NCBI RefSeq assembly: GCF_019900845.1
Contig: NZ_CP074570.1
Location: 2,356,001 to 2,420,000 of the forward strand
DNA: 64,000 bases
From: Paraneptunicella aestuarii
GTDB lineage: Bacteria > Pseudomonadota > Gammaproteobacteria > Enterobacterales > Alteromonadaceae
Direction: 5' to 3'
Part shown: positions 18,143-48,557 of the stretch, one piece after another
Layout of the letters: every line of letters begins with the position of its first letter
Position numbering within the stretch: the first letter of the stretch is position 1
Notes under the pieces: model-generated
Told to the model about the DNA's origin: nothing
Databases searched by the model: none
The model's input: only the letters and a program-made list of their open reading frames with translations
Made by a program: the position numbers and the translations under genes

Positions 18143-18268
18143 TTTAACCTCTAGGGGTTCTTAAAGGGCTGCTCTTAAAGAGCCATTACAACCTCCATAC
18201 GAACAATATCAATTGTCCAGGTAAGGACTTTATTAAAAAGCTCGCGATACGTAGCAAAATATAAGGTT

Positions 18269-21593: not shown

Positions 21594-22994
21594 ATGTCAG
21601 TAAATGTATTGCGTAAAATTTGTGGGATATCGTTACTTGGTATCGGATTTACTTTGAGTTCATCGCCTTATTGTGAAGTATTGCAATTCAAAAATGTGAA
21701 TGTCATTACCATGGAGCAGGAACAGGTTTTAGATGGTTACCAGGTTATTGTGAATAATGGAGTTATCACAGCAATAAAGCCCGATTCAGAAGCAGCGCCA
21801 GAGAATATTGATCGAGTGATTGATGCTAAGGGGTATTATATGCTTCCGGGCTTGTCCGATACTCATTTTCACCAACACGGTGGCGATTATCATGAATATC
21901 AGTTGCAATTTAAGTCATTGATTGCAAACGGAGTTACCAATGTTCGCAGTATGGCGGAGTGGTCAGAGCAAGATACCATAGCAATACGTTATAGTGCAGA
22001 TGCAAACAAGATCCTTGCTCCTTATTACTATACAACCGGGCCTCAATTAGCCCATTACAATATGAAGAACCCACAGGATGCAATCAATATGGTTCGTTTC
22101 CATAAAGATCGGGGGTATGACTTTATTAAAGTACATGGGGATTTTGATACTGAAACCTATTTTACCTTATTAAGAGAAGCTGAAAGGGAAGGTATTCCGG
22201 TTACAGGACATGCACAACGAAAGCAACCTCTTGAATATTCTTTACGTATGTATGGATTGGCACATATGGAAGAATTGGTGGTGGTGTTATCCGACGAAGA
22301 AAATTTAAAAATTGTCGATTTAGATCCTGAAACAGCAAAATCAATTGCTCAACAGGTTAAAGATAGTGGCATTTTTATTTCACCCACATTAAGCATTATC
22401 GCTGGAATTCAAAATTATACTGACGATGCTAAATTTGAAAAAATGAAAGCAAAGGAAGCGTCTAAATATATTTCATGGAAGGAATATGAGCGTTTTACCA
22501 ACCCAGAGAATCAAACCTATTACAGTCCATTCTTTAGAACCGAGAAAGTTTTGAAGTATGTGGATGATCTGATTAAAGCAAATACAATTTTAACCAAATA
22601 TCTCAATGATGCGGGTGTTCCTCTTTTAGTGGGCACTGATAATTATGGTTTTCAGATTACAGGTTTCTCGATTCATGACGAGCTTCAGCTCATGCATGAG
22701 GCAGGGATGTCAAATTACGATGTGCTAAAAGCAGCGACGATTAATAGTGCTCGTTTCCTTAAGCGTCAGAGTACAGCAGGTACTATTAGTGTTGGGAAAG
22801 AAGCGGAATTTATTTTGCTATCTGAGAATCCTCTTTCAGACATTAAAAATACCAAGTCAATTCAAGGTGTTATGTTGAGAAATCAATACTTCGATAGAGC
22901 AGGACTGGATGCCATGCTTGATGAAGTATTGAAGGCTCGACAAGCGGAATTTGAAGACGCAGCACAAGCAGCAAGCAAAAAAGCACAGCAATAA
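21594..22994 (+). CDS. Exported amidohydrolase family enzyme
   Basis: A 466-residue metal-dependent hydrolase with an N-terminal signal peptide (hydrophobic stretch ISLLGIGFTLSSSP). The metal site is recognisable: DTHFHQH (HxH) near residue 90, IKVHGD with the bridging lysine near 180, TGHA and AHMEE histidines near 205 and 223, and GTDNYG near 347. This is the imidazolonepropionase/prolidase-like branch, which hydrolyses cyclic amides or X-Pro and other peptide bonds. Position directly before the NRPS operon suggests periplasmic processing or inactivation of the peptide product; that is inference. The C-terminus is Ala/Lys/Gln-rich. Confidence 0.75.
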   Translation: MSVNVLRKICGISLLGIGFTLSSSPYCEVLQFKNVNVITMEQEQVLDGYQVIVNNGVITAIKPDSEAAPENIDRVIDAKGYYMLPGLSDTHFHQHGGDYHEYQLQFKSLIANGVTNVRSMAEWSEQDTIAIRYSADANKILAPYYYTTGPQLAHYNMKNPQDAINMVRFHKDRGYDFIKVHGDFDTETYFTLLREAEREGIPVTGHAQRKQPLEYSLRMYGLAHMEELVVVLSDEENLKIVDLDPETAKSIAQQVKDSGIFISPTLSIIAGIQNYTDDAKFEKMKAKEASKYISWKEYERFTNPENQTYYSPFFRTEKVLKYVDDLIKANTILTKYLNDAGVPLLVGTDNYGFQITGFSIHDELQLMHEAGMSNYDVLKAATINSARFLKRQSTAGTISVGKEAEFILLSENPLSDIKNTKSIQGVMLRNQYFDRAGLDAMLDEVLKARQAEFEDAAQAASKKAQQ

Positions 22995-23022
22995 ATAGTT
23001 AGGCAAAAACAACAAAGTCAGG

Positions 23023-23049
23023 CTCGTCATTGATTCGGTCAATGACGAG
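23023..23049 (+). other. Strong intercistronic stem-loop
   Basis: CTCGTCATTGA and TCAATGACGAG form a perfect 11-bp stem around a TTCGG loop, a stable tetraloop-like form. It lies between the amidohydrolase and the oxygenase. No T tract follows, so it is more likely an RNA-processing, stabilising or attenuating element than a full terminator. Confidence 0.5.
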
Positions 23050-23093
23050 ACCGGTGATGTAAGACCAATAATAACAATGACTGGGGTAAGCCA

Positions 23094-24188: not shown

Positions 24189-24248
24189 AAATAACAATAA
24201 TCACACTTACGTATTTATGCATTAACTACAAGCATCGGGATTTGAGAT

Positions 24249-27200
24249 ATGACACACGGGTACGCATTGTCTCCAGAATTACGCCATTACTGGAAACTGT
24301 TTGAAAAAACACCGAACAACGCACGAACAATCATTCGTATTCAGGGCAGTTTGCATCAGGATGCACTGAAATTAGCGTTGGAAAATGTGGCGTCCAGGCA
24401 TGAGATTTTGCGTACTCACTTAGCCTTACCTGAAAACATGATCATGCCACTTCAGGTTATTGCTGATGAAGTCCCCATTCATTGGTTTAATTCGGTAACC
24501 ATGGTGTCTGAACGAACTGATTATTCCGGCCTAAAAGATTCTCACATTAAAGAACAAGCTAATGTCTTGTTTCAGAAAATGCACGGTTCTCAGATTGATT
24601 CCCCGGCTATACAGGCACAATTAATTCAGGTGGTGGCTCCTGATTCAGAACAGAATGAATATTACCTGTTATTGATGCTGTCAGGGTTTCAGGCAGATAC
24701 TCAAACTCTCTACAATTTAACTGCCGAACTCGCCGCGTTATACGAACAAAACCTGTATGGGCAAAGTACCTTGCCACTGGTATCTGAGCCTGAGCAGTAT
24801 GTGGATATTGCCGAATGGCAAAATGAGGTGATGCAATCACCGGATGGTGAAACGGGCAAGCAGTATTGGCGTAACCTGAATTTCTACGAAGCGGCACATA
24901 CACCGATTTATCCGCTGCATAAGCGCATTCCTGAGCAATCCAAACCAGACTCAACGCAGTTCGATTTTTCTATTGCAGAGCCGCAATTGCTGTTATCGCT
25001 ACAAAACCTGGCTCAACAATACGAAATTTCGTTGCCACACTTGCTATTTACCGCATGGCAAGTCTTGTTATATCGGTTGGATAAGCGTAGCGATTTGGTG
25101 CTTGGCTATGCGCAAAATGGCCGAGATCAGGAAATGGCTTCGTTGATGGGGCTAATGACCAAAACCTTGCCAATCAAGGTGAATATCAAAGACGAGTTAA
25201 CCTTTTTGCAACTGTTGCAGCAAAATAAGCGCTCATTTGATGCGCTGGAAACCTGGCAGTATTGCTTTGACTGGCAAGAGCTAGGGCTCAATATAGATAA
25301 GCATGTAGATAAAAATCAGGAAACAAAAACAGAGCATACACCCTATTACTTGCCTTTCGCCTTTGAATACTCATGTTCTCACGCAATACACGCTAGGGAG
25401 AACCGCTTTGAGTGCATAATGCCTGATGCCAAATTTGATACCAGTGATTTACGGCTGAGCATTATCGAAGATAGCGCTAATCAAACGCTTTCCTGTCGAT
25501 TCACTTTTGATAACAATCGCATTTCTGCTTCAGTCGTGCAGAGACTATCGGGGCAGTTTCAGGCATTGTTAGAACATCTTGTATCAGAACCGGAATTAAC
25601 GATTGGAAAGCTGAATATCCTGCCTAAAGAGCAAAGGGACTATTTGCTCTACGGCGTAAACAGCAACCGCAAAGATTTTCTAAGCGACTCACCATTTTAT
25701 GATTCGAGCCATGCAAATGACTATTTAGAGCACTTATGTGTTCACCACTTAATTGATGAGCAAGCACAACGCTATCCGCAAGCCATTGCCATTGAATTTA
25801 ATGGTGAACAGCTTACTTATGCAGCGTTGCAGCAACGCTCAAATCAACTCGCTCATTTCCTTTTGGATAAGGGCGTTCAACAAGAACAAATTGTTGGCGT
25901 TCTATTGAATCGCAGCATTGACGTGCTGGTGTCTATTCTGGCGATATTTAAAGCGGGCGCGACTTATATGCCTGTGGATGTGTCCTATCCGGAAGATCGC
26001 ATTCATTACATGCTGGATAATTCTGAAGCGGCAGTGGTGATTAGTCGCTCTGAATTCAGTAGCAAAGTGGCTGATCGGGCTATTCAGTCTCTGGAACTGG
26101 ACGGCGTTAATTGGAATGATTTTCCTGATTCAGCGCCTGAACAAACAATCAATACTCATCAAAATGCCTATGTTATCTATACCTCTGGCTCAACGGGTAA
26201 ACCCAAAGGCACCTTGATACCGCACAGGGCCTTGTTAAATCATTGCCTGGGAATACAGGATTTATACCAATTTACACCTGACGATCGCGTGCTGCTGTTT
26301 GTTCCCTTTAACTTTGACCCTTCACTGGAACAGTCTATTCCTACGCTTATGTCGGGTGCGACAGTAGTCATGAAAGGCGATGAAACCTGGCCGTTGGCGG
26401 ATGTCAGTCGCATTATCGCCGAGCAAAAACTCTCGGTTATCAGCTTTACGCCCGCTTATTGGCATTTGCTGGTACAAAGCTGGGTAGGGCAGCTCCCAAG
26501 AGAGGACATTGCTCATTTGCGTTTAATCTCTGTCGGTGGTGACAAACTGCATCCTGAACTTGTACAACAATGGATGGACTTTGGCCTTGAGCATATTCGC
26601 TTGCTGAATTCCTATGGCCCCACAGAAACCACCATTACCCCGTGTATTGCCGAGCTTAACACTTGCCCGTGGCAGCAATATGGCATTGTGTCGATTGGTA
26701 AACATCTGCCTAACCGTAATGCTTATGTGCTGGATGAATACCAACAACCCGTGCCATTCGGATGTGCCGGTGAATTACACATGGGCGGTGAAAGTATCGC
26801 CTCCGGCTACCATAAGCAGCCCATGTTAACGGCAGAAAAGTTTATATCGGATCCATTCTGCGGTGATCCACAAGGCAAGATGTACCGAACCGGCGATCGG
26901 GTTTTCATGTCCGAAGAAGGCGATTTCTATTTTCTTGGGCGTGTTGATGAACAGATTAAAATTCGTGGTTATCGCATTGAAATGGGGGAAATTGAAAAAG
27001 CCATCTATCAACACCCCGATATTCAGGAAGCCGCAGTGGCGGCAATGCGCATTAACGACAAGGATCTGGATAAGCAGTTAGTCGCTTTTTATGTGTCTAA
27101 AAGTGGTCAGGATCTCAAGCGTGAGCTGCAAGCGTTGGCACAAAACGCATTGCCTGAATTTATGCGTCCTTCATTGTGGGGACAATTATCGGCGTTGCCT

Positions 27201-30200
27201 TTACTCCCTAATGGCAAACTGGATCGTAAACAACTGACGCTAGATCTCATTACTGCTAATGCCGAAGCAGAAAATCAAGCGCCAGAAACGCCGGAAGAAA
27301 AACGACTGGCAGCCATTTGGCAAGAGCTGTTTGGCATTGAGCAGGTGGGAACTCAGCAGCAATTCTTTGAACTGGGCGGACATTCATTATTGGCTATTCG
27401 TTTAGCTGCCAGTGTACGTCAGGCGTTTGAGGTGGAACTGTCCATCAAGGATATTTACAACGCTGAAAATATGGCTCAAATGGCTGCCATGATCGCTAGC
27501 AAACAAGTGCCGAGCAAGCAAGGTCAGAGTGAAACAGGTGCAACCCCGTCTGAATCCGATATCCGTGCGTTAGATAGCAAAACCGCGCCATTGTCTTTCT
27601 CTCAAGAACGATTATGGCTACTGAATGAGTTGGGTTTTGGTACTCAATATCATATGTATGGCGTGTTGCAATTGCCTCAAGCCATCATTCAGGAAGAAGG
27701 TTTTGAGCCGGAATTATTACAACAGGCACTGAATCAGCTCATTGCTCGTCACGCCAGTTTGCGGACTGTTTTCGAGGAAGCGAAAAAGAAAGAACCAGAG
27801 CACGAACAAGAACAAACCTCATCGGCTTTTGTGCAACAACGCGTTCTGGATCAGCTTGATGTCGCTCTGGGATATGTTGAATTAAGAGCGGAACAAGATT
27901 CTTTTGACGAGTACATCCGCCATTGGATTGAACAACCTTTTGATTTGTCCCAGGCGCCATTAATTCGGGCAACGCTGATCAAAACCAGTGACGATGACTT
28001 GAGATTCGCACTGTGTATGCACCACATCATTGCCGATGCATGGTCGGTGAGCATGTTATTGAAAGAACTAAGCCAGATTTATCAAGCGCTTAAAAACGAC
28101 AATACCATTGAACTTCCTGAAATTGCTCGTCAATACACGCAATTTGCCCACTGGCAACGAGAAACCTTCAGCAATGACATTGTGGGGCGGGAATCGGCTT
28201 ATTGGTTGTCGCAACTGGATGGCTATCAAAACTTCGATGGTTTTAGTGATTTTCCTCGTAAAGTCGTTCTGCCCGGGGAACCCGCACCTGCAGGAAAACT
28301 GGTTAGAACCCATCTTAATGCCGAAACGTTGAATGCTTGGAAGGGCGTCTGTTCACAGCAGAAAATCACCCTCAACACTTTATTAATGAGCTCGGTTTAT
28401 ATTCTGTTAAGCCGTTATGCCAATCAAACCGATTTTTGCCTGGGTATGCCGGTCGCGGGTCGACAAGAAGCCGCATGGCAAGATGTGGTGGGCTGTTTCA
28501 TTAATGTGCTACCTATTCGCATTAAAACCGGTTTACACAACCATAACGTTAAGCAATTTATGGATGCCGTGCAGCAAGTTATTCTGGCGGCTCAGGAGCA
28601 TCAATCGTTCCCATTTGAGAAGTTGGTTGAAGAGTTACAACCTGAAAGAGACTTAAGCCGCAATCCGGTATTTCAGGTCATGGTAAACCATATCAATGCA
28701 GTACAAAGCCTCAGCATAGTAGGGCATAAAGCCACCATTGTTGATTTGGAATACGTTGCTGCTAATTTCGATTTGTCGATGGACTTTATCGAACACAGTG
28801 ATAACAGTCTGGAATTAAGCATTACCTACCGTACTGATCTGTATCGAGACAGCTCTATTCAACAGTTAATGAGCCATTGGTTGTACCTGATAGAACAGAT
28901 GTTGCAAGCGCCAGACGCTATGACGAACAGCCTGGAATTGCTCAGTGATGAAGAAAAGCAGCAGGTTTTGCTGGATTGGAATCAACCCGATATATTTGAA
29001 CCCGAGTCTAAAACAAAGCAGAACCGCTCTTTGTTGCAACATATCGCCGACAATGCCCGTTTATATCCTCAAAACACCGCGTTGGTTTGTGGTGCCAATC
29101 AGGTTAGCTATCAGGAATTAGAACAGCAAGTTGATCAACTGGCTGCCCACATTCTAAAACAAGAGCAAGCTAATGGTTTAATGGGTGTTTATCTGGATCG
29201 CAGTATTGAGATGGTGGTTGCCATGTTGGCTATCTGGAAAGCCGGAGCCACCTATGTACCGCTGGATCCGGAATTTCCAGCCAGTCGACTGCAATATATG
29301 GTTGAAGATGCGCAACTCAGCTGCATTGTCAGCCATTCAGCTTTGCATGCCAGTAATGATTTTTCCAATGCTCATGTCATCAATATTGATGCCGTTCTGA
29401 AACAAAAAGAACCGATTGAACTTCCAATACCCGCCTTGAATCACAACGATTTGGCGTATGTTATTTACACCTCGGGTTCAACCGGGCAGCCCAAGGGCGT
29501 TGCTATAGAGCATGGAGCGCTAATCAACTTCTTAAATGGGGCAAGCCAGCGTGTTGGTATAGACAAAAACAGCTACTGTCTAGCAGTGACAACCATGGCT
29601 TTTGATATTGCAGGTTTGGAGTTGTTTGCGCCTTTGATGCAAGGCGGCAAGGTGTATATTGCCAGCGTTGAACAAACCCGAGACGGCGAACAGTTGGGAG
29701 ACATTCTCAATCAACAACCCATCTCGCTGATGCAAGCCACGCCAGCAACCTGGCAAATGCTGCTGGATAGCCCGTGGCAGCCAAGATCTGATTTAAACAG
29801 CATGACTATTCTGTGTGGTGGTGAAGCTTTACCGAAAGGCTTGGCGCAAAGACTTACAGAGCGGTTTGGTCGAGTGTTCAATTGCTACGGCCCAACCGAA
29901 GCGACGATTTGGTCTCACATGGACGAAGTCCATTTTTGCGACGATGCCGTCACTATTTGCGGGCTATTGCCGGGCTATCAACAATATGTGGTTGAACCTG
30001 ACACGCTGCAATTGCAGCCTGATGGCGTTGTAGGTGAATTGCTGTTGGGTGGGGACAGTCTGGCTCAAGGATATTGGGGTAAACCGGCATTAACCGAAAA
30101 GCAATTTATTACTGCACCTTTCTCTGTAAATAACCAGCCCCCCAGGCTTTATCGTACTGGCGATTTAGTGCGAAGAATAAATGATGGCAGCCTGGCCTTT

Positions 30201-37300: not shown

Positions 37301-40300
37301 AAAGAGGTGGTGGTTATCGCCTGTTCCGATGATGAAGGCCAAAAACGCTTAGTGGCTTATCTGGTGCTGAATAGCAGCCAAAACGATAGTTTTGATGAAC
37401 AAGCCATGATTGAGTCACTGACTCGTGCATTACAGGTTAACCTGCCGGCTTACATGATCCCAGGCAGCTTTGTCGTGCTCGAAGCTTTGCCGCTAACCTT
37501 AAACGGCAAGGTGGATAAACGTGCGCTACCCAAACCGGATTTTTCTAATCTTGCGACTCGTAAGGGCAATGAATATGTCGCGCCAGAAACCCCATTGCAA
37601 CAGCAGTTGTGTGTACTTTGGGAGTCGGTGCTGCCACAAGAAAAAATAGGCATTCACGACAATTTCTTTGCTGCCGGTGGCGATTCTATATTGGCAATTC
37701 AGTTGGTGTCTAAAGCCAGAAAAAATGGTGTTCGATTTAGCGCCAAACAGCTGATGAAGCATCAGACCATCTCTGAATTAGCACGCGAATTAGCACAGGT
37801 ATTGGCTTGCCAATTAGATCAAGAATTAGATCGTGAATTGACTCAGATTGTAAGTACGGCTGCGGATCAATCCGTATCGGACTCATTGCTTATTGCAAGG
37901 GTGCAAGAACCCACAACGTTAGAGCTCTTTTCTTTAGCGCGTTTTCCTTTAGCCCAGATCACTCAGGAAGAATTTGAAACCTGCTATCAACAATTCGGTG
38001 GTGTAGACAATCTGTACCCCGCATCGCCACTGCAACAAGGCATGTGGTTCCATTCAGTATTGGATAAACGCGCGTATCTGAATCAGCTGGAACTGAATAT
38101 TACTGGCGAGCTTAATGTCGAAGCGTTTAAGCAAGCCTGGCAACGCACTGTGGGGCATTTTGAAGCCCTGCGAACGGTATTTGTGGGGGCGGCTGAAAAT
38201 CTGCATCAATGGGTACTTGCTGCTAAGACTGTCAATTATGAATGGTTCGAATCTGAACAGGAACTCACGCAATTATCGGAATACCTTGAGCAGGATAGAG
38301 AGCGTGGATTTTTGTTTGATAACCGCAATGATGACGAAAGCAATAAACAGCCATACCCGTTAGCGCGATTTGCATTGTTCAAGCTCCGCAACGCTGAACA
38401 AGTCGATATACAAACGCAATACCGCTTTATCTGGACATACCATCATAGTTTGCTGGATGGCTGGAGCTTGCCATTAGTCTTTAAGCAACTTATGAGTGAG
38501 TATTATGCCTTGCTTGATGGTGTTGTGAATACCAACGCTGAGTTCAGAGCAGTTAATACTCAAAGCAGCGGAGCGCAATTTATTGCCTGGCTTCAGGCGC
38601 AAGATAAACGCGAAGCGTTAGCGTTTTGGCAGCAATATCTGCAAGGTATTGAGCTTCCTTCGTCCTTGGCAATGGATGCTGAATCAATCAGACAAGCCGA
38701 TTCCATTTATAAAGAGACGGGTTATCAAGATCTGAGTTATCAAGAAACTGGTTATAAAGAAACAGGCTTCACTTTAAGCTCCACAGCAACCCAGCGATTG
38801 CAGCAAAAGGCAAGGGAATGGAATGTCACCATGAACACTGTGCTGCAATACGCCTGGGCAATGCTGTTACATCAATATGGTGGACATCAGGGGCGCGGCA
38901 AAAGCTCAGATAACGCACATTCTCATTACATGGTCATTGGCTCACCTGTGGCTGTGCGCCCGGACGATATTGACGAGGCGATTGAAGACGAAGAGATGGA
39001 AGACGAAACGATACAGGAAGGAGCCATGGACGAGGCAGTAGGACTCTTTCTCAATACCCTTCCGGTAAAGGTCAATTGTGGCATCTCTGCGCAAAAGTCG
39101 ATCCAGCAACTGCATCAGGATATGCAGAAGGTGATGCAGTACAGCTATGTTTCACTAGCGGAAATTCAAAAACAGCTTGAGCAAAAGAAAATAGCCAGTA
39201 GCCCCGGGCAATCACTGTTCGATACATTATTGGCCTTTGAGAACTATCCTTTGGGCAATGCCCCTGACGCTCAAGAGCAGCCCCTGAATATCGAGGTTGT
39301 GCCGGGCAAGGCGCAAACCAATCATAAGCTGACGTTAAGCGCCAGTTTACAACCGTCTAAAGCTAATACTGAATCCCAACTATCTTTAAAAATCAGTTAT
39401 CTGGCAGAGCATTTTGCATCCAATACCGTTTCAAGATTGACCTCTCAGTTAGAGCATATTCTGCAAGGGTTGGGTGAATCGACAGGCGAGGAAACCTTTA
39501 ACTCTGGATTGCCTGATGCTGAATCAGCTTTAATCAGGGAATGGAATCAAACACAGGTCGATTTCCCAGACAATATCTGCATTCATCAGCTTTTTGAGCA
39601 GCAAGTCAAAGCCACGCCAAAGGCCATTGCGCTGATCTTCAATGAGCAACAACTCACCTATGAAGAGCTTAATAACAAAGCCAACCAGGTTGCACATTAC
39701 CTGATCCAGCAAGAGATAAAGCAGCATGATTTAGTCGGCGTTTACATGCTGCGTTCAGTGGAAATGGTGGTTGCGCTATTGGCGATCCAAAAGGCTGGTG
39801 CGGCTTATGTTCCATTAGATCCGGATTACCCGGAAGCCAGACTTGAACACGTATTGCAAGATACAGCACTATCGCAGGTGCTAAGCCATTCAAAACTGCA
39901 AGATAAAGCCTTCTATTCAAAGCTGGCGCAAAGTGCCGGCAAGACGATAACGCCGCTTGATCAATTTGTTGCTTCCAATTTCAGCGCTGAAAAACCGGAT
40001 GTGCAACATACCGCATCACAATTGGCTTACATCATTTATACCTCGGGGTCTACAGGGCTACCTAAAGGCGTGATGATTGAACATAAAGCGCTGGTCAATC
40101 GTATTCACTGGATGCAATCCGAATACAAGTTAGATGCAAGCGACGTGGTGTTGCAAAAAACGCCGTTTAGTTTTGATGTGTCGGTATGGGAGTTCTTCTG
40201 GCCATTGATTACTGGAGCAAAACTGGTGATGGCTGAGCCGGATGCTCATAAATTTCCAGAATATCTTGCAGAGGTCATTCAGGCACAAAAGGTCACGACA

Positions 40301-43300
40301 TTACATTTTGTGCCTTCCATGTTAAATGCCATGTTACATAGTGGGCTATGGTCGCAATGCGATTCGGTGCGCCGTACTTTTTGTAGTGGCGAAGCCTTGA
40401 ATGTCGAAACGGTTAAGGCATTTCATCGTGCCAGCAAGAGCGAATTGCATAACCTGTATGGGCCAACCGAGGCGGCGATTGATGTGTCGTATTGGCAGAG
40501 CCAGCCGGAAAATGCAGACGCATTGAACGTCGTGCCTATTGGCAAACCAATCCAAAATATTCAATTACAGGTGCTGAATGAGCAATTCCAGCCTGTACCT
40601 ATTGGTGGTATTGGTGAGCTGTATATTGGTGGCATTGGGCTGGCGCGAGGTTATTTAAACCGTGATGAACTGACCAAAGAACGCTTTATTGAACTTGATA
40701 TTAACCGTGAGCGGAATCGTTATTACCGCACAGGGGATTTGGCGCGATGGCTACCCAATGGTGAGCTGGAATATCTGGGGAGAAATGACCATCAAATCAA
40801 GCTGCGTGGTTATCGTATTGAACTGGGTGAAATAGAAGCCAAACTCCGTTCCTGCGAACAGGTTCAGGATGCCGTTGTGCTCGTTGCTTCAATACCAGCC
40901 TCTTCTCAAGCTTCCGCTTCATCCTCATCTAAAGCACAGGAAGCGCAACACCAGCAACTGGTTGCCTATGTGGTTTTTCAGGCAAATGAGAAAAATAAGG
41001 AAGAGCGTCTATTACAAACCAAACGAGATTTGGCACGAGATTTACCTTCCTTTATGGTTCCTGATAGCTATGTCGTGCTTGATGCTTTGCCACTGACGTC
41101 CAATGGCAAATTAGACAGAAAAGCGTTACCCAAGCCTGATCACCAGCACTATAACAAGGACAGAAAAGCTCAAGTTAAAGAAAAAGCGAATACAGCGAAT
41201 GCCAGAAACCGTGTGGAGAGCTTGCTACAGCAAGCCTGGCAAGACGTGCTGGGGCTTGAGTTCATCGATCTTGAGGATAGTTTCTTTGAACTGGGTGGCA
41301 ATTCACTGTTGGCGGTGACCTTGAAAGAGCGTATCCAGCAAGCATTACAAGCCGATTTTCCGGATTTGGCTTCGTTGATTAAAGTGACTGATATCTTCAC
41401 TTATCCCAGTGTTGCAGCCATGAGCGGTTTTTTAAGGCAATCAGCAGGGGATAGTATCCCTTGGGAACCCGAAGTATCTGACAGACATACGCCTCAAGCC
41501 ATTGGTTCAGATATCGCCATTATCGGCATGAGCGGCAAATTCCCGGATGCCAGTAATGTTGACGAGTTTTGGCACAACCTGTTGGATGGACATGAAGCGC
41601 TGGAAGAGTTGTCTGATGATGAATTACGCCAACGCGATGTGCCTTTAGAATTAGTTAACAATCCCGACTATGTAAAACGCAGTATGCGTTTCACCGGGCG
41701 GGAATGGTTTGATAACGACTATTTTCACATTCCAAACAAGCAAGCGTCGATGCTTGATCCTCAAAATCGTTTATTGCTGCAAACCGCGGTGCATTGTTTG
41801 GAAGATGCCGGATATCCGCCGTATTCGAGAAAAGCTCAAGGTGTGAATGCGAGAATTGGGGTTTATGTGGGCAAGTCCAGCAACATTCCCTGGTTGCAGA
41901 TGATTAGCGCAGCAATGGCTAATACTGGCGCTAACGATGCCACAAGCGCTATTACTGCGCTAACGCAGGTAGAAAAAGACTTTCTGGCGACTCAGATTTC
42001 TTACTATCTCAACCTGACCGGCCCCAGTATTAATGTCTCCACAGCTTGTTCCACCTCGCTCGTTGCGGTGGCTGAAGCTTGTAAGGCATTGATGTTTGGT
42101 GAGTGCGAAATGGCGTTGGCTGGCGGGGTAAGTTTGATGCCAATGGAGCCCGCTGGCTATTTGCACCAAGGCGAGTTTATCGAATCAAAAGATGGCCATT
42201 GTCGTCCTTTCGATCGCGACGCCAGCGGCATGGTGCAAGGCAATGGTGCCGGGTTGGTATTGCTCAAGCCCTTGTCCTTAGCGATGGAAGATAACGATCA
42301 GATCCATGCGATAATTAAAGGCTGGGGCTTGAATAATGATGGCGCTCAGAAGACCTCTTTCGGTGCGCCTAATCTGCAAGGTCAGGCTGAGGTTATTCGT
42401 GAGGCTTACCGTAAATCGGGCATTGAACCGGGTTCCATTCACTATATCGAAACCCACGGAACCGGTACCTATATTGGCGACCCGGTGGAACTTGGTGCGT
42501 TGTCTCAGGTATTTTCCGCTTCAAATCCTAAAACAACCCCGTGTTGGTTAGGTGCCGTCAAAGCCAATATTGGTCATTTGGATGCGGCGGCTGGTGTTGC
42601 GGGTTTGATTAAAGCGGTTCAGGTACTGAAAACGGGTATCGTGCCGCCTAATCGGAATTTTCATGTTCCTAACCCGGAATTAGCCGAGTGGGTGAATCAG
42701 GACGGAGCTTCTTTTGCTACTACGCCTTTTGCTATTAGCAATGAAGTTCAAAAAATTGAGTCGGAAGGCGCAAGGCGAGCGGCAGTAAGCTCCTTTGGCA
42801 TTGGCGGCACCAATGTGCATTTAATATTGGAGCAAGCGCTAGAAATAGATGTTCAACAAGCAACAAACGATAACAACCAAAGCGCGATTAAACACTTGTT
42901 GCCGTTATCCGCCAAAGACGAATCGGCCTTAAAACGCAGCGCAAGTCGCTTGTTAACGCACCTTGAAGCCCGTCCTGAACTGTCTCTTGCCGATGTCGCT
43001 TATACCTTGCAAACAGGACGACGCCATCATAGTCACCGGTTACTGTGGCAAGAACATAGCCTGGAAAACTTTAAAGCCAGTTTGCGGCACATTGTTAGTA
43101 GCGACTCGGAGCTAACACCCGTTTTAACCGAAGCCGTTAAACCGAGTGATATGGTGTTTATGTTTCCGGGGCAAGGCAGTCAGTATGCAGGTATGTTTGC
43201 TGAACTTTATCAACGGGATCCCAGCGATTACTCTTGTTATCGGGAAAACATTGATGCTTGTATCGCTGAATTTGAAAGGCAATGGCAAGTCTTTGCTCAA

Positions 43301-46300
43301 TCTAACCCCACGTATACCTTGGATGTGCAGTGGTTAACGGATTCGTTGCGTTCAATATTATGTGCTCCCAAACCCGTCGTTGATGAGTCGTTTCAAACCG
43401 AACTGGTACAACCGGCATTATTCTGTGTGGAATATGCCCTTGCCAAATCACTGATGGAGCAGGGGGGAACGCCCAAAGCCATGATAGGGCATTCATTAGG
43501 GGAATATGTCGCAGCGACGCTTTCGGGTGTCTTTGAATTGAGCGATGCCATCAAGTTGGTGACGTATCGCAGTCAATTAATGCAATCGCTTGAAGCTGGG
43601 AGAATGATCTCGGTTCAGGCCAGTCAGGATGTGCTGCAAACCTATGCTCAGCAGTATGATTTAAGTATTGCGGCAATTAATGGTGATCGTTTGGGAGTGC
43701 TGTCGGGAAGTATAGAGAAAACAGAGCGTTTCTTGTCTTATGCACAGAAAACAGGGATGCGCTATCGGCTATTAAACACCTCTCACGCATTCCATTCATC
43801 CATGCTTGATCCGGTTTTGCCTGCCTTTAGAGAGGTATTAAGCAGCATTAGCTTACATGCCCCAAAAATGCCATTTATCTCTAACGTTACAGGGGAGTGG
43901 ATAACATCTGAACAAGCAACAGACAGCCAATACTGGGTTGAGCATTTACGTGGCACTGTGATGTTCTACCCGGGTGTGCAATGCCTCACTCATAACAGTG
44001 ACTCTGTGTATTTGGAGGTGGGGCCAGGCAACACCTTAACCGGGTTGCTGGGGCGTTATATTCCAGAGCAGTTACCGCGCATTCTTTCTGCGGATAAGCC
44101 TGTTTATCAAGGTGTGGAAAGCGAGAACGGGTTGCAACAATTATTGGTTGATGCCTGGTTGCAAGGCGCCAATATTGATTGGGATAGATTTAATATCAAT
44201 AAGCAAGGAAAGACCGTTTCCTTACCCGGTTATCCTTTTGCGGAAAAAGCACATGCTGTGCCTAAGAGAACGGCGATTTCTAATGTAATGAAGCCGCAAA
44301 CCCGATTTAGTCTGGACGACTGTACTTATCTTCCGATTTGGAAACCGGTTGGGCTGGCTCACGAGTTCTCACCGATAGCCTTGTCGGATAGCAAATCGGT
44401 TCTGTTGTTTACCTATACGGATGAAACTCAAGCTAGCTTAGGTAGCTCGGGTATTACGCAACAAATGGCAAGTGCATTGAAAACGCATTTGGGTCTTTTA
44501 GATTCTGCCGAGTTGGATGTTTATCAAGTTCATATCGGCAGTGAGTTTAAGCAAATCAACGAGCAGTGTTTCGAAATAAACCCGGAAGCTCCGGCGGATT
44601 ACCAACGGTTATTGCAACACTTGCAAGATACTCGCGGTGCGATCCCTGAGTTAATTCTTCATGCGTGGAACCTGACTCTTAACGAAACAGATAGAGACAA
44701 AGACGAGCTAACACTGGCGCAAATGCAGCCAGCTCAAACCATCAGTGTTTACAGTGGTGTTTATCTGGCACAGGCGTTGTCGCCTTACCTTTCCAATAAC
44801 ACCATTGCCCTGCGCTTTATCAGTAGCAATGCGCATCCTGTACCGGGTGATCATCGTTTTGTTCCGCAACACTCAGGAATAACGGCTGTCAGTAAGATTA
44901 TTGGCGTGGAGTACAACCGTTTATCCTGCCAATCCATTGATGTTGATTTATCTCAACCGAATATCAATGTCGTCAGTCTGGCAGGGCAAATATTAGCGGA
45001 AGCCTTTGGTTTTAAAGATGACGCTAAACCAGACGATCTGGTTGCCATCCGTCATGGCATGCGCTTTTTGCCTTCCTATGAGCAAGTTCGCTTACCAGAA
45101 GTGAAAACTCAAACCCGATATAAAGAGCAGGGTGTGTACCTGATTGTTGGCGGGTTAGGTGGCATGGGATTGGTGTTTGCTGAACATATCGCCAAGCATG
45201 TAAATGCCACGATTGTGTTGCTTAACCGTTCGACCTTTATTGCACGCGATAAATGGGAAGAGTATTTACTTGAACATGCATCCTCGCAACAAGAAGAACA
45301 TCTCATTACCTGTAAACGTATCCGCGCCATTCAGCATATTGAGAAGCTCAGTAGCCGGATTGTGATACAGCAAGCTGATGTAGCGAACCGTTCAGATATG
45401 ACCCGAGTGATTGAATACATTTACAAGCAGTGCGGGCAAATAAACGGATTAATTCATAGTGCTGGTGTGGTGGATTACGGTGGCATTATTCAGCGTCGCG
45501 ATAAAGCCACTATTGAGCAATATACGCGCTCTAAAATTCAGGGCACGCTTTTGTTAGATGAGTTGTTAGAGGGGCTACAGGCAGATCATCCTCTGGATTT
45601 CATGATACTGGGTTCCTCCATTGCCAACGTTGCCTATTACTCGCGCTATGCTCAAGTGGGTTATGCCATCGCTAACGAGTTCCTCGATTGCTTCTCCTAC
45701 TATAAGAATTCAGTGAGCGAAACCTTTACCAGCACCATCAATTGGGATGATTGGTATGAAGATGGGATGTCTGCGCAAATTCTGGATAACGCCGGAAGAA
45801 GCGATTTTGACCGTGAACAGGTGTCTTTGCTCAATGATGAAGGGGAAGAACTTTATAGCCGCATACTGAATAGCTCCCACTCCAGAGTCGTAGTTTCTAC
45901 CCAGCCGTTAACCCGGTTGATGAACTATTACTACGATTTAGTGATGTCTACCTATCACGAACTGGAACTCAGTGATGATCAAACCGAAGAGCTTTCAAGT
46001 GACAAACAAAGCTTTAGCGCCGAAGAGATCAGGGAACAGGTTATCGCAGCGGTCACAGAAGTGTTTGGTACTCAGGATGTTTCAAGTACATCTGAAAGCG
46101 GAGAGAGGGATGGAGAGCTGGATTTTGTCGCACTTGGCGGCGATTCACTCATCGCACTACAACTGATTAATAACTTACAAAAACGTCTGGGTATACGCAT
46201 TGGTGTGGAAGATATCTTCGCTGATACCCGGATATCCAGCATTACAAACAATCTTATAAAACAACATAGTCAAAACCAGTTAATGGAAGTGGTAAGCAGT

Positions 46301-46363
46301 CACCATAATCAGGATGAAGACAGCGAAAATGCTGAACACAGCAGAGAAACGGGGTTGATTTAG
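34316..46363 (+). CDS. Hybrid NRPS-PKS (C-A-T, C-A-T, KS-AT-KR-ACP), no release domain
   Basis: A 4015-residue megasynthase. C4 has PHSIADG (second His kept) near residue 220. A4 (about 560-1070) reads D-L-F-N-N-A-L-T-Y-K, an alanine code. T4 is near 1120. C5 has HHSLLDG near 1375. A5 (about 1750-2250) reads D-V-W-H-F-S-L-I-D-K, a serine code. T5 is near 2325. KS (about 2398-2830) has TACSTSL with Cys2578, ETHGTG and KANIGHL. AT (about 2945-3240) has GHSLGEY and HAFH, the malonyl-CoA signature. KR (about 3600-3830) has GGLGGMG, the catalytic serine in GSS and tyrosine in VGYAIAN. ACP has LGGDSL near 3940. There is no thioesterase, reductase or terminal C domain: about 50 polar residues end the protein. 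Expected additions are Ala, Ser and one malonate reduced to a beta-hydroxy unit. Confidence 0.93.
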   Translation: MSQKPLSAEKQRLFELLKAKKSATEQVKNTKAAFKSAEPFSLISEEDKALLLENNQIDLEDAYPVGQIQLGMLYHMEFDEVQHESAAQESGAPPDSLSSNNHPPDYHNVTTFRMRFKEAYQHSDFVKAVNAVVANQSNYRTTFDLTSYSEPLQLIHKACPITVPYEDLRSQEPAQQQQVIHAFIERENLNPVDMTCLPLVRFYIHQLEDNQVSLTFTEPHSIADGWSLHLAFVDIVDAYLKYRQQQEVVFTQPKTSYADFIRAEKQALQSQEAKTFWRSQLAECVTTVLPKQVEMAVSSHLPQQFELNTHIDAHRGRFTLPANVVQALRKLVQRTGFPMKAIFLAAHFRVLSLVTGQRKVTTGLSFNGRLEVETAEQVRGMFLNTLPVTLDLTGGTWLQLIEQAHKAEMAIVPYRRYPVSALTREFNHGANKQQGDQILFDTMVSFLHFHSMESTIKDGHVEIEPTEDLSKSNFGLAGHFHMDTERENSIQFIGDADLNKISRSQFLAMLDYYQRVIAQIAFHPDSSYHTEHFLPKAEYRKLMTEWQGAKLDCEQVNIPAMFEQQVARTPNAIALQCKTGSLTYQALNEKANALAHYLISQGIKPDSLVAICFERTLDMVIAQLAILKAGGAYVPMDPAYPKDRLAYYLQDSKAAMLLTQEKVKAHLSEIAEETLVISLDDPAFKMQLAALEQSQEQSQKQPLEQNPNYEFIGLAPHHLAYVIYTSGSTGKPKGVMVEHGNTVAFLQWCLTQFSPQELSRVLFSTSVCFDLSIFELFVPLSCGGTVVLVDDVLELTALSDDKADEQNKDHLQQLTLINTVPSAIKALLKTGDIPDSVTTVNLAGEPLSQDVVVALYARGVEKVYDLYGPSEDTTYSTYCLRKANGIASIGRPIANTQAYVLDSHQQPVPIGVPGELYLAGAGIARGYLNRKEQTDERFCYLPWLQLRAYRTGDLVRYLPDGNLVYLGRMDDQVKIRGFRIELGEIQTRLLQQDMVKEVVVIACSDDEGQKRLVAYLVLNSSQNDSFDEQAMIESLTRALQVNLPAYMIPGSFVVLEALPLTLNGKVDKRALPKPDFSNLATRKGNEYVAPETPLQQQLCVLWESVLPQEKIGIHDNFFAAGGDSILAIQLVSKARKNGVRFSAKQLMKHQTISELARELAQVLACQLDQELDRELTQIVSTAADQSVSDSLLIARVQEPTTLELFSLARFPLAQITQEEFETCYQQFGGVDNLYPASPLQQGMWFHSVLDKRAYLNQLELNITGELNVEAFKQAWQRTVGHFEALRTVFVGAAENLHQWVLAAKTVNYEWFESEQELTQLSEYLEQDRERGFLFDNRNDDESNKQPYPLARFALFKLRNAEQVDIQTQYRFIWTYHHSLLDGWSLPLVFKQLMSEYYALLDGVVNTNAEFRAVNTQSSGAQFIAWLQAQDKREALAFWQQYLQGIELPSSLAMDAESIRQADSIYKETGYQDLSYQETGYKETGFTLSSTATQRLQQKAREWNVTMNTVLQYAWAMLLHQYGGHQGRGKSSDNAHSHYMVIGSPVAVRPDDIDEAIEDEEMEDETIQEGAMDEAVGLFLNTLPVKVNCGISAQKSIQQLHQDMQKVMQYSYVSLAEIQKQLEQKKIASSPGQSLFDTLLAFENYPLGNAPDAQEQPLNIEVVPGKAQTNHKLTLSASLQPSKANTESQLSLKISYLAEHFASNTVSRLTSQLEHILQGLGESTGEETFNSGLPDAESALIREWNQTQVDFPDNICIHQLFEQQVKATPKAIALIFNEQQLTYEELNNKANQVAHYLIQQEIKQHDLVGVYMLRSVEMVVALLAIQKAGAAYVPLDPDYPEARLEHVLQDTALSQVLSHSKLQDKAFYSKLAQSAGKTITPLDQFVASNFSAEKPDVQHTASQLAYIIYTSGSTGLPKGVMIEHKALVNRIHWMQSEYKLDASDVVLQKTPFSFDVSVWEFFWPLITGAKLVMAEPDAHKFPEYLAEVIQAQKVTTLHFVPSMLNAMLHSGLWSQCDSVRRTFCSGEALNVETVKAFHRASKSELHNLYGPTEAAIDVSYWQSQPENADALNVVPIGKPIQNIQLQVLNEQFQPVPIGGIGELYIGGIGLARGYLNRDELTKERFIELDINRERNRYYRTGDLARWLPNGELEYLGRNDHQIKLRGYRIELGEIEAKLRSCEQVQDAVVLVASIPASSQASASSSSKAQEAQHQQLVAYVVFQANEKNKEERLLQTKRDLARDLPSFMVPDSYVVLDALPLTSNGKLDRKALPKPDHQHYNKDRKAQVKEKANTANARNRVESLLQQAWQDVLGLEFIDLEDSFFELGGNSLLAVTLKERIQQALQADFPDLASLIKVTDIFTYPSVAAMSGFLRQSAGDSIPWEPEVSDRHTPQAIGSDIAIIGMSGKFPDASNVDEFWHNLLDGHEALEELSDDELRQRDVPLELVNNPDYVKRSMRFTGREWFDNDYFHIPNKQASMLDPQNRLLLQTAVHCLEDAGYPPYSRKAQGVNARIGVYVGKSSNIPWLQMISAAMANTGANDATSAITALTQVEKDFLATQISYYLNLTGPSINVSTACSTSLVAVAEACKALMFGECEMALAGGVSLMPMEPAGYLHQGEFIESKDGHCRPFDRDASGMVQGNGAGLVLLKPLSLAMEDNDQIHAIIKGWGLNNDGAQKTSFGAPNLQGQAEVIREAYRKSGIEPGSIHYIETHGTGTYIGDPVELGALSQVFSASNPKTTPCWLGAVKANIGHLDAAAGVAGLIKAVQVLKTGIVPPNRNFHVPNPELAEWVNQDGASFATTPFAISNEVQKIESEGARRAAVSSFGIGGTNVHLILEQALEIDVQQATNDNNQSAIKHLLPLSAKDESALKRSASRLLTHLEARPELSLADVAYTLQTGRRHHSHRLLWQEHSLENFKASLRHIVSSDSELTPVLTEAVKPSDMVFMFPGQGSQYAGMFAELYQRDPSDYSCYRENIDACIAEFERQWQVFAQSNPTYTLDVQWLTDSLRSILCAPKPVVDESFQTELVQPALFCVEYALAKSLMEQGGTPKAMIGHSLGEYVAATLSGVFELSDAIKLVTYRSQLMQSLEAGRMISVQASQDVLQTYAQQYDLSIAAINGDRLGVLSGSIEKTERFLSYAQKTGMRYRLLNTSHAFHSSMLDPVLPAFREVLSSISLHAPKMPFISNVTGEWITSEQATDSQYWVEHLRGTVMFYPGVQCLTHNSDSVYLEVGPGNTLTGLLGRYIPEQLPRILSADKPVYQGVESENGLQQLLVDAWLQGANIDWDRFNINKQGKTVSLPGYPFAEKAHAVPKRTAISNVMKPQTRFSLDDCTYLPIWKPVGLAHEFSPIALSDSKSVLLFTYTDETQASLGSSGITQQMASALKTHLGLLDSAELDVYQVHIGSEFKQINEQCFEINPEAPADYQRLLQHLQDTRGAIPELILHAWNLTLNETDRDKDELTLAQMQPAQTISVYSGVYLAQALSPYLSNNTIALRFISSNAHPVPGDHRFVPQHSGITAVSKIIGVEYNRLSCQSIDVDLSQPNINVVSLAGQILAEAFGFKDDAKPDDLVAIRHGMRFLPSYEQVRLPEVKTQTRYKEQGVYLIVGGLGGMGLVFAEHIAKHVNATIVLLNRSTFIARDKWEEYLLEHASSQQEEHLITCKRIRAIQHIEKLSSRIVIQQADVANRSDMTRVIEYIYKQCGQINGLIHSAGVVDYGGIIQRRDKATIEQYTRSKIQGTLLLDELLEGLQADHPLDFMILGSSIANVAYYSRYAQVGYAIANEFLDCFSYYKNSVSETFTSTINWDDWYEDGMSAQILDNAGRSDFDREQVSLLNDEGEELYSRILNSSHSRVVVSTQPLTRLMNYYYDLVMSTYHELELSDDQTEELSSDKQSFSAEEIREQVIAAVTEVFGTQDVSSTSESGERDGELDFVALGGDSLIALQLINNLQKRLGIRIGVEDIFADTRISSITNNLIKQHSQNQLMEVVSSHHNQDEDSENAEHSRETGLI

Positions 46364-46413
46364 GTTGTTGATTAGGCACTAAAAAAGCAAATACACACGG
46401 GATAATTATTCAT

Positions 46414-47478
46414 ATGAGCATAAGCACAACAAGCAAAAATGAATTTCGAATACTGGATGGTGATTGTATTCGAAAGCTCTTGGCTGGTAACGAAGCCAAT
46501 GTTGTACAGATAGTGAAAAACGCTTATACCACCTACGGTAAAGGTGCATTTTCACTGCCCCATTCAGTTTTTCTGCGTTTTGAGGAACAACCCGCGAACC
46601 GGATCATTGGGCTGCCGGCTTATCTTGGCAACGAATTCAATGTTGCCGGTTTGAAATGGGTGTCTTCGTTTCCGGGAAATCTGGAAAAAGGCATTGATCG
46701 TGCTTCTGCTACATTAACCTTAAATGATATGGAAACCGGGCGGCCTATCGCCTTGCTGGAAGCGTCGTCGATTAATGCTTGTCGCACTGCGGCAAGTGCG
46801 GCCTTAGCGGCGCAGCTTTTACATGATAAAACAAATGCAACCCATTGCAGTTTGATTGGTTGTGGCTACATTGGCTTTGAGTGCTTGAACTACCTTAAGC
46901 ACTGCATACCGTCGTTAACTGACGTTACCTTGCTGGATTTGGATGAGAGCCGAGCGAAACATTTGGCGCAACGGTTAGATGAAGCGCACATCGACCTTCG
47001 TGTGCAATTTACCCAAGATATCGCTCAAGCCTGTCAGGCGGATATTGTGGTCTTCGCTACAACGGCGGGTACGCCCTGGTTATTGGATGAAACGCTGTTT
47101 TCGCCAGAAACAACGGTTCTGCATGTGTCCCTGCGTGATTTGGGAACGCAAGTGATGTTGTCCGGACAAAATATTGCAGACGATATCGACCATGTCTGCC
47201 GAGCCAATACGTCACCGCATCTGACAGAAATGGAAACGGGCAACCGTGATTTTATGACGACCAGCTTGCCAGATGTTTTAGCTGGAAATGTCCAATATCA
47301 ACGAGACAAAACCAAACCATTGATTTTCAGCCCTTTTGGTTTAGGCATTTTGGATATCGCAGTTGGGCAATGGTTGCTACAACAAGCCATAGAAAAAGAG
47401 CAGGGAACCGTTATCCATAACTTCTTTCCCACTCCCTGGAAAACAGATTCAGAAAAAGATTCAGAGGTGTCGTTATGA
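46414..47478 (+). CDS. sbnB: SbnB-like dehydrogenase for 2,3-diaminopropionate synthesis
   Basis: A 354-residue member of the ornithine cyclodeaminase/mu-crystallin fold, closest in character to SbnB. SbnB oxidises N-(2-amino-2-carboxyethyl)-L-glutamate to release L-2,3-diaminopropionate and 2-oxoglutarate with NAD+. The NAD-binding site is IGCGYIGFECLNYL near residues 149-162, and the substrate region is LKWVSSFPGNLEKG near 76-90. A conserved late segment, DVLAGNV, is also present. It lies 50 bases after the hybrid synthetase and overlaps the SbnA-like gene by ATGA. The pair makes Dap, the expected building block of the NRPS. Confidence 0.9.
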   Translation: MSISTTSKNEFRILDGDCIRKLLAGNEANVVQIVKNAYTTYGKGAFSLPHSVFLRFEEQPANRIIGLPAYLGNEFNVAGLKWVSSFPGNLEKGIDRASATLTLNDMETGRPIALLEASSINACRTAASAALAAQLLHDKTNATHCSLIGCGYIGFECLNYLKHCIPSLTDVTLLDLDESRAKHLAQRLDEAHIDLRVQFTQDIAQACQADIVVFATTAGTPWLLDETLFSPETTVLHVSLRDLGTQVMLSGQNIADDIDHVCRANTSPHLTEMETGNRDFMTTSLPDVLAGNVQYQRDKTKPLIFSPFGLGILDIAVGQWLLQQAIEKEQGTVIHNFFPTPWKTDSEKDSEVSL

Positions 47479-48557
47479 TCAATGCAAACCTGTTAGATTT
47501 GGTCGGTAACACGCCCATTGTTAATCTCAAGCCCTTTGATGAAAACGATTTTTCTAACGGCGATTGTAGTGCGGATATTTACGCCAAGCTGGAGTATTAC
47601 AATCCAACCGGAAGCATTAAGGATCGCCCTGCGGCTTACATTATTCGTCACCTGCTGTTAAGCGGAGAAATCAATAAAAACAGCACCATTATTGAGTCTT
47701 CATCTGGCAACTTTGGCATTGCATTGGCGGCAATTTGTAAGTCGGAAGGCATTCGATTTATTTGTGTTATCGACCCTAATATCCTTAGTCATAATGAGTT
47801 TTTATTGCGCCAATATGGTGCTGAGATCGTGAAAGTATCAGAGCGTGATGATACTGGTGGTTATCTGAAAACCCGATTACAGAAAATCCAGGAGTTGAAA
47901 GAGCATAATCCGGATTTTGTCTGGATCAACCAATATGCCAATCCGCGTAATGCCATGGCACACTACTATGGCACTGGAATGGAAATCTATAAAACCTTTG
48001 CCGATCAAGGGTTGGACTATATTTTCATTGCGGCGAGCTCAGGCGGCACGATTGCCGGAACCTCACAAATCCTTAAAGAGCAGTTTCCGCAAATTAAGGT
48101 GATTGCCGTTGATGTGGAGGGCTCTGTGATATTCAGCGATGAGCCCAAGAAACGTTATATCCCGGGGATGGGATCCAGCATTCGCCCGGAACAGGTGAAA
48201 AGGGCACATATTGACCAGATTATTCATGTAAAAGAAAAGGATATCATTGATGGCTGCATGGAATTAATGCATCACCACAGTCTGTTTGTTGGTGGTTCAT
48301 CGGGAGCCGTTTATGTTGCCATGAAGCAGTTTATTCGTTCAAAAGAGTTTGTCAGTTCCTATATCAAACCCAATTACCCCGACAATAAAGGTTCCAAGAA
48401 CACTCAAAGCTGTCATCCAAAGATGTTGATGTTATTTCCGGATCGTGGTGATCGCTATACATCGACTGTATACAATGAGCAGTGGGTAAAAGAACATTAC
48501 GTGGACAATTTAACGTTAGAAAGCATTATTGAGGAAAATCGCGAGATAGCTCTATAG
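47475..48557 (+). CDS. sbnA: SbnA-like PLP enzyme for 2,3-diaminopropionate synthesis
   Basis: A 360-residue cysteine-synthase-fold enzyme. SbnA joins O-phosphoserine and glutamate to give N-(2-amino-2-carboxyethyl)-L-glutamate, the SbnB substrate. The PLP lysine is in PTGSIKDRPA near residue 48. The cofactor phosphate loop is SSGGTIAGT near 188 and the substrate loop SSSGNFGIA near 75. A C-terminal extension (LFPDRGDRYTSTVYN) is typical of this family. Translationally coupled to sbnB. It is the last gene of the cluster, followed by a hairpin at 48601-48635. Confidence 0.9.
   Translation: MINANLLDLVGNTPIVNLKPFDENDFSNGDCSADIYAKLEYYNPTGSIKDRPAAYIIRHLLLSGEINKNSTIIESSSGNFGIALAAICKSEGIRFICVIDPNILSHNEFLLRQYGAEIVKVSERDDTGGYLKTRLQKIQELKEHNPDFVWINQYANPRNAMAHYYGTGMEIYKTFADQGLDYIFIAASSGGTIAGTSQILKEQFPQIKVIAVDVEGSVIFSDEPKKRYIPGMGSSIRPEQVKRAHIDQIIHVKEKDIIDGCMELMHHHSLFVGGSSGAVYVAMKQFIRSKEFVSSYIKPNYPDNKGSKNTQSCHPKMLMLFPDRGDRYTSTVYNEQWVKEHYVDNLTLESIIEENREIAL

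What the first reader, a model, noticed from the sequence alone, without database searches (positions are those of the whole stretch)
21594..48557. NRPS-PKS cluster predicted to make a Dap-Gly-Thr-Ala-Ser-(reduced malonate) lipid-free peptide-polyketide
Seen: two translationally coupled megasynthases with five A domains and one KS-AT-KR-ACP module, flanked by a SyrP-like oxygenase, an exported amidohydrolase and an SbnB/SbnA pair. Known: SbnA/SbnB make L-2,3-diaminopropionate. Inference: specificity residues give basic amino acid (Dap)-Gly-Thr-Ala-Ser, then a beta-hydroxy ketide. I do not recall a described compound with this order; Dap is found in antibacterial peptides.
Basis: partly seen in the sequence, partly recalled or inferred. 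Interest (0 to 1): 0.85.

Follow-up and report, generated by a model that had tools for sequence, protein, structure and literature searches.

The report
Orphan peptide-polyketide gene cluster with hydroxylase
A bacterium carries an uncharacterised assembly line predicted to make a small, positively charged peptide ending in a serine-derived short hydroxy acid; the kind of machinery is known, but the product and its first building block are not.

Summary
Six co-directional genes (21594-48557) encode an amidohydrolase, a SyrP-like Fe/alpha-ketoglutarate oxygenase, two coupled megasynthases with five A domains and one KS-AT(malonyl)-KR-ACP module, then SbnB and SbnA. Codes fit Gly, Thr, Ala and Ser.

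NRPS1 begins with a condensation-like domain that has lost HHxxxDG and falls in a clade of such domains from loci chosen for SyrP-like oxygenases: probably an 'interface' (hydroxylase-docking) domain. No thioesterase was found.

A1 (DPESSGSIT) has a basic-residue pocket. A1 and the oxygenase group with the same three loci in two trees; two of those three genomes show no SbnB. Beta-hydroxylating Dap would give an unstable carbinolamine. Dap at position 1 therefore rests on SbnAB and elimination; Lys/Arg-like, then hydroxylated, fits somewhat better. Against this, SyrP-like genes lie beside sbnB at 7 of 13 places examined elsewhere, so Dap is not excluded.

Predicted product: (beta-OH-basic)-Gly-Thr-Ala-Ser-C2 with a free N-terminus, perhaps self-released as a delta-lactone (untested). 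Orphan cluster of a known kind with an unusual start; modest novelty.

The parts
21594..22994 (+). Amidohydrolase (PF01979) with a signal-like N-terminus (by eye); possible peptidase or self-protection enzyme
   Evidence: weak PDB matches include prolidase, Xaa-Pro dipeptidase, bottromycin amidohydrolase and Cc2672 carboxypeptidase; on contigs of equal length with oxygenase hits P0001-P0004
23094..24188 (+). SyrP-like Fe(II)/alpha-ketoglutarate oxygenase (PF02668); H142, E144, H336 and R348 invariant in the 13 sequences aligned
24249..34319 (+). NRPS1: interface-like domain, A1-T1, C2-A2(Gly)-T2, C3-A3(Thr)-T3
24249..25658 (+). N-terminal condensation-like domain without HHxxxDG (SGFQADT in its place): probable interface domain
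25686..27248 (+). A1, code DPESSGSIT: basic amino acid (Lys/Arg-like, Dap not excluded); boundaries approximate
34316..46363 (+). NRPS2: C4-A4(Ala)-T4, C5-A5(Ser)-T5, KS-AT(malonyl)-KR-ACP; no thioesterase found
41510..42685 (+). Ketosynthase domain, motifs TACSTS, HGTGT and NIGH present
43154..44041 (+). Acyltransferase domain, GHSLG and HAFH (malonyl-type, recalled)
45131..45754 (+). Ketoreductase domain, nucleotide-binding and catalytic motifs present by eye
46004..46279 (+). Terminal acyl carrier protein, followed by 27 residues and the stop
46414..47478 (+). SbnB family (2,3-diaminopropionate biosynthesis)
47475..48557 (+). SbnA family (2,3-diaminopropionate biosynthesis)

Best explanation
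This is an orphan NRPS-PKS cluster. Assembly starts on A1-T1 of NRPS1 with a basic amino acid, probably Lys/Arg-like and less probably Dap. The C-like domain at the N-terminus, which has lost its catalytic motif, does no condensation; it docks the SyrP-like oxygenase, which beta-hydroxylates the T1-bound residue. Gly, Thr, Ala and Ser follow, then one malonyl extension with ketoreduction gives a 4-amino-3,5-dihydroxypentanoyl (Ser-derived, statine-like) end on the ACP. With no thioesterase found, the Ser hydroxyl may attack the thioester and release a delta-lactone, or a separate enzyme releases the acid. The amidohydrolase, if exported, would act on the finished peptide as self-protection or maturation. 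SbnA and SbnB supply L-Dap; where it enters is unsettled. Shown: genes, domains, codes, loss of HHxxxDG, tree placements. Inferred: docking, hydroxylation, residue 1, release, amidohydrolase role.
For: Domains. Loss of HHxxxDG and placement in a 29-row clade (SH-aLRT 99): 27 rows scored noHH, the window row, and one row scored HH by the loose match NHETQDA. That clade includes modules with DLTKIG(H/E)xG codes, Asp-type by recall. The oxygenase tree puts the window enzyme in a 22-row clade (99) with L021, L022 and L023, apart from the DAQD and DLTK groups (the other 18 rows are proteins, seen without their neighbours). A1 groups with the A1 domains of the same three loci (97). Gly follows in the window, L021 and L022. 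E239/S278 match the residues named for Lys in Pls_A and Arg/Tyr in ApnA A1 (PMC11253843, passages), and ApnA genotype c, DVESIGAIEK, one strain, had Arg only (PMC5311044, table seen as a passage). ApnA A1 is the best-scoring single-A-domain chain in the PDB search.
Against: The siderophore beta-hydroxylase families named in PMC12971057 act on Asp or His (passage); none on a basic residue is named there. SbnAB directly follow the NRPS genes and four of the five A codes are taken, so elimination favours Dap at A1. A SyrP-like gene lies within about 1.1 kb of sbnB at 7 of 13 places (5 of 10 SbnB-bearing genomes) elsewhere, and one of them (L117) has an E239 code, DVEDVGATP. The genome of L023, one of the three relatives, has an SbnB. 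The L021/L022 code DPENIGAVT resembles DVENAGVVTK, printed at the Ahp position of cyanopeptolins (PMC2533009, passage), so 'basic' is not certain for them. Release is pure inference.
Confidence: 0.5

Rival explanations
1. Residue 1 is L-Dap, supplied by SbnAB; the oxygenase acts on Dap (for example to a dehydro-Dap, or after N-capping) or on another residue.
For: SbnB and SbnA pass their family cut-offs and follow NRPS2 by 50 bases; A2-A5 codes are taken by Gly, Thr, Ala, Ser; TauD-SbnB neighbours recur at 7 of 13 places, though those genomes were chosen for having related oxygenases.
Against: A1 differs from the D[IV]W[EQ]xT[AT]DD codes found at 5 of 13 SbnB places, in 3 genomes; the genomes of two of the three nearest A1/oxygenase loci show no SbnB at E 1e-40 (L022's is an incomplete MAG); beta-hydroxy-Dap is a carbinolamine; the 92,531-base contig with the 88%-identical oxygenase is not among the contig lengths of the best 120 SbnB hits, though it may end before such a gene.
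Confidence: 0.38
2. The cluster makes a metallophore: the beta-hydroxylated residue and other hydroxyls chelate iron.
For: Asp/His beta-hydroxylases mark metallophore clusters, and further unexplored hydroxylase clades near transporters are mentioned (PMC12971057, passages); SbnAB belong to staphyloferrin B synthesis (PMC3179956, abstract start).
Against: No receptor or transporter among the 10 neighbouring genes profiled (the rest of the window was not profiled); A1 is neither Asp- nor His-type by code.
Confidence: 0.15
3. The line is incomplete: the ACP-bound chain passes to another synthase in trans.
For: No release domain found; 90 AMP-binding matches in this genome, this cluster's five, fragments and non-NRPS enzymes included.
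Against: No trans partner identified; genes after SbnA are KatG, a subtilase, a frame without family and a chemoreceptor.
Confidence: 0.2

Closest known systems
SyrP-like / siderophore beta-hydroxylases with interface domains (Reitz et al. 2019, cited in PMC12971057 and PMC12230676; original not held; details recalled)
   Same: TauD-family enzyme gene next to an NRPS that starts with a condensation-like domain lacking HHxxxDG
   Different: Named substrates are Asp and His; here the following A domain is E239-type, and it opens the assembly line with no C domain before it
L021 Pseudoalteromonas peptidolytica and L022 Alteromonadaceae bacterium DT_5 NRPS loci
   Same: Oxygenase 50-51% identical, C-like first domain without HHxxxDG, related A1, Gly second
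   Different: Follow an upstream NRPS; no amidohydrolase or SbnAB match within the fetched stretches; larger assembly line in L022
SbnA/SbnB (staphyloferrin B) and SbnAB-bearing NRPS clusters such as chitinopeptins (PMC9248904, passages)
   Same: Same Dap-forming gene pair beside NRPS genes
   Different: Here no A domain in the cluster has a code that I can call Dap-type
Zwittermicin / galantinic acid / statine-type units (recalled; pepstatin paper PMC12081711 seen as a listing with start of abstract)
   Same: Aminoacyl chain extended by one malonyl and ketoreduced
   Different: Different peptide; no thioesterase found here

Membership tests
NRPS-PKS hybrid cluster | A, C and carrier modules joined to KS-AT-ACP with intact motifs | tested here: met
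SyrP-like / interface-domain beta-hydroxylase system | TauD-family oxygenase with His-x-Asp/Glu...His | tested here: met
SyrP-like / interface-domain beta-hydroxylase system | Condensation-like domain without HHxxxDG beside the hydroxylated module (definition recalled) | tested here: met
SyrP-like / interface-domain beta-hydroxylase system | Adjacent A domain for Asp or His (the named substrates) | tested here: not met
   A1 DPESSGSIT; substrates named
SyrP-like / interface-domain beta-hydroxylase system | Hydroxylation of the carrier-bound residue | not testable with these tools
   needs biochemistry
SbnAB L-Dap synthesis | Both genes above family cut-offs and nearest to SbnA/SbnB-type structures | tested here: met
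   (the best SbnB match, 4m54, is labelled putative ornithine cyclodeaminase; that it is S. aureus SbnB is recalled)
Dap-incorporating NRPS | A domain with a Dap-type code | tested here: inconclusive
   No verified Dap code to compare with; A1 differs from codes at 5 of 13 SbnB places
Any MIBiG compound | Same domain order and product | not tested
   antiSMASH and MIBiG not available
Lipopeptide with starter C domain | Catalytically competent N-terminal C domain | tested here: not met
   HHxxxDG lost

The most novel reading that the evidence does not exclude
A clade of SyrP-like oxygenases with matching A domains, seen in Gammaproteobacteria and Acidobacteriota, beta-hydroxylates carrier-bound basic amino acids through interface domains; in this cluster the interface domain opens the assembly line, so the peptide starts with a free, hydroxylated basic residue.
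Probability: 0.4. Interest if true: 0.55.

Novelty: new variant of a known kind. Interest (0 to 1): 0.42.

Why it matters
If right, it widens the substrates of interface-domain hydroxylases beyond the Asp and His named in the papers seen, and gives a rule for reading hydroxylated basic residues from sequence. It also changes the mass to look for compared with the first prediction (residue 1 hydroxylated, N-terminus free, no thioesterase found). It does not reveal a new kind of machinery.

Tried and rejected
Origin: I first took the genome for a shipworm-type Cellvibrionaceae because of its NRPS wealth and one hit, and read part 1 of one section of a shipworm paper. This is not supported: G843, placed in the same family as the window, matches L022 in contig length (68,896) and position, and L022 is titled Alteromonadaceae bacterium. 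A 16S comparison with 10 genomes gave 94% to an unnamed member of the same family. The window's own name is not known.

Metagenome relatives: the closest oxygenases (P0001 88%, P0002 75%) lie on contigs that I did not read (no metagenome scan was allowed); only equal contig lengths link them to amidohydrolase hits. P0005-P0007 have no amidohydrolase of equal contig length among the 120 listed. At E 1e-90 only the own genome of 394 in the order had the oxygenase; at 1e-85 the own and one other of 395 in the family.

Dap code: tried from SbnB neighbourhoods. 5 of 13 places (3 genomes, three of the five in one genome) gave one code family; 4 gave other codes and 4 showed no A domain in the stretch. 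Three further SbnB places in relatives (L128, L151, L152) showed neither a SyrP-like gene nor an A domain. The papers opened for Dap codes gave none usable. In the own-genome stretches examined no A domain has that code; one is DVWQMIGDD.

A metallophore reading and a trans partner were considered and ranked lower. Structure prediction was not used.

Tree caveats: searches are quick trees with SH-aLRT only. Rows were thinned or chosen: 101 of 122 C-like domains, 22 of 120 listed proteins added to locus hits, 155 of 234 A domains. In one search, 21 of 48 noHH rows lie outside the interface clade (8 in a weak, mostly actinobacterial group, 8 Lentzea rows, others single; some probably mis-cut). 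In one search code labels were given per locus, and DAWQ-labelled oxygenases are scattered (5 changes, shuffled mean 6.9).

Odds: on recheck the best explanation went from 0.55 to 0.5 and the Dap rival from 0.35 to 0.38, because L023's genome does hold SbnB and the SbnAB-side codes come from only 3 genomes.
Full report
What is there. One search gives six co-directional reading frames from 21594 to 48557. Pfam and NCBIfam name them: amidohydrolase, TauD-family oxygenase, two NRPS/PKS megasynthases of 3356 and 4015 residues, SbnB and SbnA. NRPS1 and NRPS2 overlap by 4 bases, as do sbnB and sbnA; the other gaps are 99, 60 and 50 bases. KatG begins 282 bases after sbnA and ends the cluster in my reading; an FMN reductase on the other strand lies 695 bases before it.

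Domain order. NRPS1 is (C-like)-A1-T1-C2-A2-T2-C3-A3-T3; NRPS2 is C4-A4-T4-C5-A5-T5-KS-AT-KR-ACP. KS has TACSTS, HGTGT and NIGH; AT has GHSLG and HAFH, the malonyl type; KR has GGLGGMG and an S-Y-N set (read by eye, meaning recalled). The protein ends 27 residues after the ACP match. Pfam at E 0.001 lists no thioesterase or reductase domain in either protein.

A-domain codes (same). A1 DPESSGSIT, A2 DILQLGCIWK, A3 DFWSVGMVH, A4 DLFNNALTYK, A5 DVWHFSLID; position 517 is missing from three of the cut segments, though [NS]GK-type A10 motifs are present for all five. From recall, A2-A5 are standard Gly, Thr, Ala and Ser codes.

The overlooked first domain. The first 477 residues of NRPS1 match condensation domains of solved structures (best E 4.3e-22, chain 5u89_A), and where that chain has HHMIVDG the window has SGFQADT. 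In a tree of 101 of 122 C-like domains from the window and from the loci (69 loci chosen for SyrP-like oxygenases), this domain lies in a 29-row clade with SH-aLRT 99: 27 rows scored as lacking the motif, the window, and one row scored as having it through the loose match NHETQDA. The clade includes modules with DLTKIG(H/E)xG codes, Asp-type by recall. Not every row directly follows an oxygenase gene. This fits the interface domains that antiSMASH 8 lists together with siderophore-associated beta-hydroxylases (PMC12230676, passage); that they lack HHxxxDG is recalled, as the original paper was not held.

The oxygenase and A1 go together. In a tree of 110 oxygenases the window enzyme lies in a 22-row clade (99) with those of L021, L022 and L023; the other 18 rows are proteins, seen without their neighbours. 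In a tree of 155 A domains window A1 lies in a 4-row clade (97) with the A1 domains of the same three loci: DPENIGAVT, DPENIGAVT and DADNIGAIT. Gly follows in the window, L021 and L022. Some other oxygenase groups also go with one code (DAQD-type, DLTK-type), but DAWQ-labelled ones are scattered. So the oxygenase most likely acts on residue 1 (inference).

What residue 1 is. E239 and S278 correspond, by my numbering, to the residues that hold the side-chain amine of Lys in Pls_A and orient Arg/Tyr in ApnA A1 (PMC11253843, passages). ApnA genotype c, DVESIGAIEK, one strain, had Arg only (PMC5311044, table seen as a passage), and ApnA A1 is the best-scoring single-A-domain chain in the PDB search with A1. 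This favours a long basic residue. Against it, DVENAGVVTK, close to the L021/L022 code, is printed at the Ahp position in cyanopeptolins (PMC2533009, passage).

Where Dap stands. SbnB and SbnA are good family members. Of 31 genomes with related oxygenase loci, 10 have SbnB at E 1e-40; those of L021 and L022 do not, that of L023 does, on a contig of another length. L022's genome is an incomplete MAG (93% complete, 5% contaminated as G843). Around the 13 SbnB places found, 7 (5 genomes) have a SyrP-like gene within about 1.1 kb, and 5 (3 genomes) have an A domain with D[IV]W[EQ]xT[AT]DD. Those oxygenases lie outside the window's clade, and the A domains of that code kept in the tree form a 7-row clade (99) with DVWQMIGDD. 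SbnB occurs in 2 of 118 relatives (E 1e-40) and 3 of 369 genomes of the class (E 1e-60), the own genome counted in both. The 92,531-base contig with the 88%-identical oxygenase holds the 93%-identical amidohydrolase by its length, but that length is absent from the best 120 SbnB hits; the contig may end before such a gene.

The amidohydrolase. Equal contig lengths (92531, 9169, 66389, 25911) pair it with the four nearest oxygenase hits P0001-P0004; the next three, P0005-P0007, have no such partner among the 120 listed. It is therefore probably part of the pathway. Weak PDB matches include prolidase, dipeptidase and carboxypeptidase-type amidohydrolases; a role in self-protection or maturation is inference.

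Product and release. Predicted chain: residue 1, probably beta-hydroxylated, then Gly-Thr-Ala-Ser, then a C2 unit reduced to a hydroxyl. The terminal 4-amino-3,5-dihydroxypentanoyl thioester could close to a six-membered lactone through the former Ser hydroxyl; no test was possible.

Novelty. The ten paper searches made cover open-licence PMC text only, were aimed at the parts and not at the whole product, and no compound database was queried; nothing in their listings named this compound. [quoted passage not shown] The cluster is an orphan of a known kind with an unusual start module; interest is moderate.

Noticed in passing
L121, L123, L127 (one genome, the contig of 11,646,492 bases titled Kutzneria sp. 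744; three places): Recurrent group of an NRPS A-domain protein with code DIWQST[AT]DD, a SyrP-like oxygenase, SbnB and SbnA: a possible carrier-bound Dap-modifying unit.
   Followed up: partly
Own genome: 90 AMP-binding matches in a 4.9-Mb genome, fragments and non-NRPS enzymes included, with an open frame of 10,773 residues: rich in NRPS genes.
   Followed up: partly
window 14409-18904: Nucleoside phosphorylase-like, PRPP synthetase-like, DNA/RNA endonuclease and GTP cyclohydrolase II genes in a row, upstream of the cluster.
   Followed up: no
window 51252-52406: Subtilase (minus strand) with likeness below cut-off to mycosin and PatA/PatG maturation proteases.
   Followed up: no
L157-L159 (contig of L022): Related larger NRPS locus with a second oxygenase beside a second NRPS that begins without HHxxxDG, and a KS-bearing module in L157.
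   Followed up: partly
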